Source of the DNA: Steroidobacteraceae bacterium
GTDB taxonomy: Bacteria; Pseudomonadota; Gammaproteobacteria; Steroidobacterales; Steroidobacteraceae
Length of the DNA: 64,000 nucleotides
Assembly: GCA_029266835.1 (NCBI GenBank)
Contig: JAQSWD010000003.1
Coordinates: 52,434-116,433, forward strand
Direction of reading: 5' to 3'
Shown here: piece after piece, positions 48,747-49,497 of the stretch
How the letters are laid out: each line of letters opens with the position of its first letter
Numbering within the stretch: position 1 is the stretch's first letter
Made by a program: the position numbers and the translations under genes
Notes under the pieces: generated by a model
Told to the model about the DNA's origin: nothing
Databases searched by the model: none
What the model saw: the letters and a program-made list of their open reading frames with translations, nothing else

Positions 48747-49118
48747 ATGGCGGGTTTCCTGTTGCGCGGCCTGATGGCCGCACTGGGTCTCTGGGCGGCC
48801 ACCACGATCCTGGATGGCATCGCCATCGATTCGGCGACCACGCTGATCCTCGCCGGGTTGTTGTTAGGTGTGGTGAACGCCATCGTGCGGCCGTTCGCCT
48901 TGCTGCTCGCGTTGCCGGCGCTGCTGCTCACGCTCGGACTCTTCCTGCTGGTCATCAATGCCGCCATGCTCGGCCTCGTGGCGTGGTTTCTTCCCGGCTT
49001 CAAGATCGCCGGGTTCTGGTCCGCCGTTGGTGCGGCGCTCATCGTCAGCGTCGTGAGCTGGATCGGATCGTGGTTCATCGGGCCACGGGGGCGCGTCGAG
49101 GTCATCCGCCCGAAGTAA
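48747..49118 (+). CDS. Small four-helix membrane protein, PF04020 (phage holin IV-like, YvlD family)
   Basis: 123 residues, four hydrophobic helices (for example LLRGLMAALGLWAATTILDG, LILAGLLLGVVNAIVRPFAL and LPALLLTLGLFLLVINAAML). The conserved IVRPFALLLALP turn and the Gly-Phe-rich WFLPGFKIAGFWSAVGAAL are typical. Despite the family name these are chromosomal membrane proteins of unclear function, not phage lysis genes. Last gene of the ctpA-dedA-SRPBCC run. A repeat hairpin begins at its stop codon. Confidence 0.88.
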   Translation: MAGFLLRGLMAALGLWAATTILDGIAIDSATTLILAGLLLGVVNAIVRPFALLLALPALLLTLGLFLLVINAAMLGLVAWFLPGFKIAGFWSAVGAALIVSVVSWIGSWFIGPRGRVEVIRPK

Positions 49119-49162
49119 ATGGGGTCACTCCCCATTTGCTAGCAAAAGGGGTCAGGCCTGGA
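49117..49162. repeat. Dispersed palindromic repeat copy after the PF04020 gene
   Basis: AAATGGGG-TCACT-CCCCATTT (49117-49137) overlaps the TAA stop codon and continues with GCTAGCAAAAGGGGTCAGG. Over 44 positions it agrees with the left half of the 37035-37144 element at 37, so they share an origin. The hairpin could terminate the upstream operon. Confidence 0.7.
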
Positions 49163-49179
49163 TGTGTGGTTTGTTAAGA

Positions 49180-49402
49180 GCGCGGCCGACGCACGCGCAT
49201 GATCGAGTCCGCTTTTCGCCGGGCCATTCGGGTTGGTGGCGCCGCCAGCTTCCGGCCGCCGACACTCAGGATGCGGAAAACACCTAACCAGTGGTGACGT
49301 TAAGGCAACCTAGGCCCCGATTGGCGCGGGGATCGGCTCCGTGCCTTGCGAACGTCAGGTACCCGGCCCGCTCCCTCGATCATGCGCATGCATCGGCCGC
49401 GC
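49180..49402 (-). other. 223-bp element with 28-bp terminal inverted repeats: MITE or structured RNA
   Basis: Arms at 49180-49207 and 49375-49402 match at 26 of 28 positions and are flanked on both sides by AAGA (49176-49179, 49403-49406), like a 4-bp target duplication. The interior is also self-complementary: 49221-49225 pairs with 49365-49369, 49230-49233 with 49361-49364, 49295-49301 with 49351-49357, 49302-49307 with 49342-49347 and 49315-49319 with 49327-49331. Both arm mismatches become G-U pairs in a minus-strand transcript but A-C clashes in a plus-strand one, hence the strand given. No protein frame is credible. The 95 bp from 49403 to 49497 hold nothing recognisable. Confidence 0.55.
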
Positions 49403-49497
49403 AAGAACCGCGCATCGAGGAACGACTCCGGTTCAAGCAAACGAGGATTGCCTGGTGCTTGGACGAGAGCTGGACCCGAATGTGGTTACCGCCCACC

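What the first reader, a model, noticed from the sequence alone, without database searches (positions are those of the whole stretch)
49180..49402. 223-bp structured element: long terminal inverted repeats, internal helices, AAGA flanks
The gap holds two 28-bp arms matching at 26 positions, flanked by a direct AAGA. Nested complementary segments (listed in the feature) would fold the interior into a branched structure. The AAGA flanks suggest a miniature transposable element. Both arm mismatches turn into G-U pairs only on a minus-strand transcript, which hints at selection on an RNA. It matches no RNA family I recognise (6S, tmRNA, RNase P, SRP considered). It could be a new MITE family or a new non-coding RNA.
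Basis: partly seen in the sequence, partly recalled or inferred. Interest (0 to 1): 0.72.

Follow-up and report, generated by a model that had tools for sequence, protein, structure and literature searches.

The report
Dispersed long-hairpin repeat at gene ends
This 223-bp stretch is one of five copies in its genome of a dispersed repeat whose long hairpin stays paired while its letters change, which suggests that it likely works as a folded single strand, probably an RNA, and it probably belongs to a wider family of such repeats that sit at the ends of genes in two other genera.

Summary
In detail: two 28-nt arms, 26 of 28 paired, both mismatches G-U on the minus strand. The element is not unique. 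Its genome holds five copies. A model of these led to 17 copies, some partial, in a second genus (G013); a motif hit led to 9 near-full copies in 1.17 Mb of a third (G007). Terminal arms differ between copies but stay complementary: 15 of 73 pairs (own) and 25 of 52 (G013) change on both sides. Wobbles favour one strand (G-U 42, A-C 9). AAGA is not a target duplication: another copy elsewhere has the same flanks. Three congeners keep the neighbouring genes without the element, most simply because it inserted here. In G013 each of 6 double loci joins an A-type and a B-type module, 5 divergently; module 3' ends face gene 3' ends in 22 of 23 scored cases. Best reading: a new family of non-autonomous, probably mobile repeats with a strand-specific folded body, likely RNA. 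Against: no promoter found, no transcript data, the other strand folds better in G007, and the window's family is tied to the other two only by a short motif, one helix and architecture.

The parts
49180..49402 (-). hairpin module (copy c1); the strand with the G-U pairs is the minus strand, 5' end at 49402
49375..49402 (-). 5' arm of the terminal helix (minus strand)
   Evidence: covariation
49180..49207 (-). 3' arm of the terminal helix (minus strand)
   Evidence: covariation
49334..49347 (-). core motif AAGGCACGGAGCCG; AAGGCACNNAGCCG in 5 of 5 own, 7 of 17 G013 and 1 of 9 G007 modules; its inner part GGCANNNAGCC in 5 of 5, 16 of 17 and 9 of 9
49332..49337 (-). 5' side of a proposed long-range core helix GCCGAU
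49258..49263 (-). 3' side of that helix GUCGGC
49212..49232 (-). 21-nt block invariant in all five own copies (plus strand CTTTTCGCCGGGCCATTCGGG)
49173..49180 (+). outer boundary motif GTTAAGAG, kept in c1, c2, c4 and nearly in c3, c5 (by eye); contains the left AAGA
49403..49489 (.). flank on the 5' side of the module, conserved with c2 and, more weakly, with c3; contains the right AAGA; ends 8 bp before the stop codon of the EamA gene
49116..49160 (.). separate REP-like palindromic repeat (24 matching rows in the genome, itself included), not part of the module

Best explanation
The window holds one copy of a dispersed, probably non-coding and probably mobile hairpin module that likely acts as a roughly 225-nt folded RNA read from the minus strand, outward towards the end of the neighbouring gene. 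Shown: five copies in separate places of one genome; absence at the same place in three congeners; arms that change in step; a wobble excess on one strand. Shown in the second genus: double loci made of two modules of different arm type, mostly divergent around a short spacer, mostly between gene 3' ends. Inferred: that the strand is used as RNA; that transcription starts in the spacer or runs through from the gene on the 5' side; that the module lands beside gene 3' ends because insertion there is targeted or least harmful; that an enzyme supplied in trans moves it. The changing but paired stem would hold the conserved core in place, and the core would be the part that a protein recognises.
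For: Copies: five in own genome (150 of 1298 first-look candidates scored), 17 in G013, some partial (3 further rows were self-arm or 22-base matches), 9 near-full in 1.17 Mb held of G007. Compensation: own 15 of 73 pairs changed on both sides, 0 of 500 shuffles as high; G013 25 of 52 pairs, 0 of 500 shuffles, slid helices 4-11 pairs (15 of 17 copies used, two incomplete ones left out). Strand: G-U 42 against A-C 9 over 20 modules (two incomplete G013 modules left out); 22 against 3 after collapsing to distinct columns per arm type; G007 8 against 3 over 9 copies, 3 against 1 distinct. Own copies: the minus (module) strand folds better in 4 of 5. Insertion: the holin-like and EamA genes adjoin in G001, G002, G003 without the element, and R1 finds no copy in these three genomes. 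Orientation: module 3' end faces a gene 3' end in 22 of 23 scored modules, of 29 then known. Kinship of G007 and G013: a G007 sequence profile matches 14 of 17 G013 modules on the right strand, E 8.5e-5 to 0.83, 4 of them below 0.01, and no other place in the 11 loci searched; the G013 model R2 gives three rows in 693 kb of G007, all modules on the right strand.
Against: No sigma-70-like promoter in c1 or in the G013 C116 composite; one terminator-like site in C116, none in c1, both at chance level. No transcript data. In G007 the opposite strand folds more stably in all 7 copies tested; in G013 the module strand wins in 7 of 17, the other in 9, one tie. Consensus structures were derived from the same alignments that were then counted, which favours them. 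G007 arms hardly vary and show no covariation. The window's family is tied to the other two only by a short motif, one helix and architecture: core-only profiles gave E 1.4 at best in one direction and 47 in the other, where one shuffle outscored every real core; the G007 profile did not find own modules. R2 finds four of five own modules on the right strand at 29-44 bits, but plain hairpins without the motif score up to 38 bits with R2. No gene for a mover was found.
Confidence: 0.55

Rival explanations
1. Single-stranded DNA element: the folded strand is DNA, recognised by an HUH-type or other single-strand transposase, as proposed for REPINs, and there is no functional RNA.
For: G-T wobbles are also tolerated in ssDNA hairpins (recalled). 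The inverted doublet with a spacer resembles REPINs, in which compensatory hairpin changes are also reported (PMC3116915, passages). No promoter found.
Against: G013 (98% complete) has no Y1_Tnp match although it holds 17 copies; G000 has two, and the REP repeat flanks one of them while no module copy lies on either contig. Other HUH families were not searched.
Confidence: 0.25
2. Ordinary MITE whose arms are transposase-binding terminal repeats; arms match because each subfamily follows its own transposase.
For: Short, dispersed, no shared frame seen, arms inverted; in G007 arms are nearly identical between copies.
Against: In own genome and G013 the inner core is more constant than the arms, the reverse of what a TIR element should show; A and B arms in one composite differ; no consistent target duplication around six composites; strand bias of wobbles.
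Confidence: 0.12
3. Neutral quasi-palindrome: template switching during replication keeps the arms complementary without any selection.
For: A known mutational process for imperfect palindromes (recalled); it would produce compensatory changes.
Against: It does not predict a one-strand wobble bias that points outward on both strands of the same locus, nor a conserved core, nor the A+B make-up of all six G013 double loci.
Confidence: 0.08

Closest known systems
REPIN / REP doublets with RAYT transposases (PMC3116915, passages seen)
   Same: dispersed extragenic inverted doublets with a spacer, hairpin-forming, compensatory changes, singlets beside doublets
   Different: module is about 205-230 nt instead of a short REP; the conserved part is the inner core, not the ends; the two modules are of different arm type; G013 has no Y1_Tnp match
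Intergenic MITEs of bacteria such as ERIC, Correia/NEMIS, RUP (review PMC2229807: abstract and outline seen; sizes recalled)
   Same: 100-250 bp, found between genes, MITE-like, some with transcribed hairpin motifs
   Different: no target duplication; arms diverge while the core is kept; divergent two-module composites; module 3' end set against gene 3' ends
Structured non-coding RNA families (Rfam)
   Same: conserved core, covarying helices, strand preference
   Different: c1 reaches no Rfam family; the G013 C116 stretch matches only a microRNA hairpin model far below its gathering score, on both strands; many dispersed copies per genome

Membership tests
MITE | short, several dispersed copies | tested here: met
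MITE | terminal inverted repeats of shared sequence across the family | tested here: inconclusive
   arms conserved in G007, diverged but complementary in own genome and G013
MITE | target-site duplication | tested here: not met
   AAGA shared by c1 and c2 at different loci; only scattered 4-5-base repeats around six composites
MITE | autonomous relative with matching ends | not tested
   only Y1_Tnp was sought; no transposase among the flanking proteins that Pfam named
REPIN | inverted doublet as the unit | tested here: inconclusive
   G013: 5 of 6 double loci divergent, one tandem, the rest single or cut by a contig end; own C142 pair divergent, c1 single; G007: single or tandem, no divergent pair among 9
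REPIN | RAYT (Y1) gene in the genome | tested here: not met
   G013: 0 matches, 98% complete; G000: 2 matches
REPIN | short REP ends with GTAG or CGTC tag (title and abstract start of PMC3733652) | tested here: not met
   no such shared end in the arm and flank listing, by eye
Known Rfam RNA | score above a family's gathering threshold | tested here: not met
   window at gathering; c1 and one G013 composite at permissive E
Functional RNA | transcript | not testable with these tools
   no expression data held

The most novel reading that the evidence does not exclude
A mobile RNA family: paired, divergently read hairpin RNAs of two arm types that colonise the gaps behind genes in several genera, in which the RNA itself, held in a fast-evolving double-stranded rod, is the form recognised for spread or for control of the adjoining gene ends.
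Probability: 0.25. Interest if true: 0.8.

Novelty: new variant of a known kind. Interest (0 to 1): 0.58.

Why it matters
Dispersed bacterial repeats are mostly studied as DNA. Here kept pairing, strand bias and a constant core point to selection on one folded strand, and the A+B composites and the set against gene 3' ends are regular enough to test. If the RNA is real, it would be a self-spreading RNA gene and a handle on how convergent gene ends are managed.

Tried and rejected
Plasmid and phage records: no match. IMG/VR: no match to two patterns. Genome contigs: three exact 20-mers in other phyla or classes; none scores above 8.5 bits with R1, taken as chance. G052 31-bp hit: looks coding by eye, judged chance. 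Protein coding: one-base gaps between own copies break any shared frame (by eye). tRNA or tmRNA: none in the modules; one tRNA-Gln beside a G013 module. Motif hits at G013 C121, G013 C47:34539 and G000 C180: no module there. Plain long hairpins score with the models too: R1 up to 47 bits at G013 C105 on one strand; R2 on both strands at C105 up to 47.6, at C30 up to 37.9 and in G002 up to 23, and on one strand at L126 32.9 and L148 26.6. C30, L148 and the G002 hairpin lack GGCANNNAGCC. So model score alone is not proof of kinship. RAYT as the mover: the REP repeat sits by a RAYT gene, the modules do not. Papers: searches listed no report that I recognise as this repeat (listings only); the family name used as a term was a guess.

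Limits: R1 and R2 searches that included G007 missed it, so absence elsewhere is not shown. The strict R1 search saw 217 genomes, only the own one matched, G013 was missed. The pattern scan covered 396 genomes of the order: 41 matches in 38 genomes other than G000 and G013; 28 of the 41 were held as loci and tested, one was real. Arm types, choice of flanking genes and the 22-of-23 count were assigned by hand with Pfam support for most genes. Unscored of 29: c3, the C47 module that faces its tandem partner, and four G007 modules; two more G007 copies were found later. The one that fails is the B module on C102, next to the start of a semialdehyde dehydrogenase gene.

Full report
Observation. 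The arms, the flanking AAGA and the one-strand wobble are as described, and a repeat of that quality is not a chance product of this composition.

Copies in the same genome. BLAST and a covariance model built from the copies found five: c1 (window), c2 on C66, c3 and c4 on C142, c5 on C62. c2, c3 and c5 lie within 150 bp of a contig end, so more copies may be missing from the assembly. The plus strand has C-A where the minus strand has G-U, in c1, c2 and c3 at the same two places.

Not a target duplication. c2 lies behind another gene and has the same AAGA on both sides; c3 has it only on the left. The left AAGA is part of GTTAAGAG at the outer end of the module; the right one lies in a flank conserved between c1 and c2 for about 87 bp. 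The palindromic repeat to the left (49116-49160) is a separate REP family with 24 matching rows; two weak copies (E 1.6e-4 and 0.024) flank a RAYT gene on C65.

Insertion. The holin-like gene (PF04020) and the EamA gene (PF00892) are neighbours in three congeners. G003 has about 100 bp between the aligned parts; G001 and G002 have another open frame there, and G002 also an unrelated hairpin of about 100 nt without the core motif; none has the module. Loss in three lineages is not excluded.

Structure. The five own copies change on both sides at 15 of 73 pairs, 14 of them in the terminal helix. Fifteen of 17 G013 copies give 25 of 52 pairs, 19 in the outer helix and 5 in the next; no shuffle of 500 reached this, and helices slid by 1-3 columns had 4-11 such pairs. 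One of five measures on the own alignment, further pair types, was reached by 38 of 500 shuffles. The inner core is nearly invariant, so its pairs are mostly untested.

Strand. Mismatches in the arms, counted without a fold: G-U 42, A-C 9, other 46. Collapsed to distinct columns per arm type: 22 against 3. Because A and B modules lie on opposite strands of one locus, replication bias is an unlikely cause; selection on the outward strand, or deamination of the non-template strand during outward transcription, could do it. Folding energy is divided: the module strand wins in 4 of 5 own copies, in 7 of 17 in G013 with one tie and in 0 of 7 in G007.

Second genus. A loose search with the own model gave three matches in G013, and BLAST with one of these gave 17 copies (40 of 54 candidates scored). 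They fall into two arm types by eye. Six contigs hold two copies: each is one A and one B, five divergent, one tandem; three composites are 524 bp, two shorter. The own C142 pair is likewise divergent and of two arm types. Nearly all flanking genes named by Pfam are ordinary metabolic, transport or tRNA genes. A copy lies behind dcd in both genomes, which may be chance.

Third genus. Of 28 motif loci in other genomes one, in G007, scored weakly with both models at the same place (13 and 15.8 bits). Its sequence gave 7 and then 9 near-full copies, in 0.69 and 1.17 Mb of a genome of about 5.2 Mb. A profile of seven G007 copies matches 14 of 17 G013 modules on the right strand, E 8.5e-5 to 0.83, and no other place in the 11 loci. 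The reverse, a G013 core profile on 0.69 Mb of G007, gave four rows at E below 1, two of them modules, while R2 gave three rows, all modules. I take these two families as related. G007 copies are single or tandem, not divergent pairs.

Link of the window's family. GGCANNNAGCC is present in 5 of 5 own, 16 of 17 G013 and 9 of 9 G007 modules, at the same distance from the inner helix in the joint alignment (24 of 31 modules aligned). A helix GCCGAU/GUCGGC here stands against GCCGCC/GGCGGC there: 143 of 144 cells pair, though one shifted control also reached 87% because the motif repeats. Reciprocal core profiles were weak, and in one direction a shuffle beat every real core. I rate common origin at about 0.75.

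Mechanism. I commit to a mobile repeat with a folded outward strand, most likely RNA (0.55), and hold single-stranded DNA as the main rival (0.25). The mover is unknown.

Noticed in passing
49116-49160: REP-like palindrome repeated in the genome (24 matching rows); two weaker copies in inverted orientation flank a RAYT gene on contig C65 (L136).
   Followed up: partly
L013:5160-5441 and L049:3-274: A module lies directly behind the dCTP deaminase gene in both G000 and G013, two genera.
   Followed up: partly
reverse complement of L132, about 513-1288, and of L133, about 414-1172: G002 and G001 carry an open frame of about 250 aa between the holin-like and EamA genes, where G000 has the repeat.
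   Followed up: no
L132:414-521: G002 has a near-perfect hairpin of about 100 nt without the core motif in the same gap.
   Followed up: partly
L045:6684-6822, L146:865-1003, L148:1-95: Three near-perfect hairpins in G013 (about 95-140 nt) with purine-rich GGGGAGGGGTTTT-like arms, perhaps another repeat family; the first has a core resembling the own motif.
   Followed up: partly
L150:16245-16755: Two G007 modules in tandem, 305 bp apart, with short CGAACGAAGCC-like repeats in the flanks.
   Followed up: no
L053:1230-1460: The single B module on G013 C131 has what looks like a remnant of an A arm upstream, separated by another palindrome.
   Followed up: no
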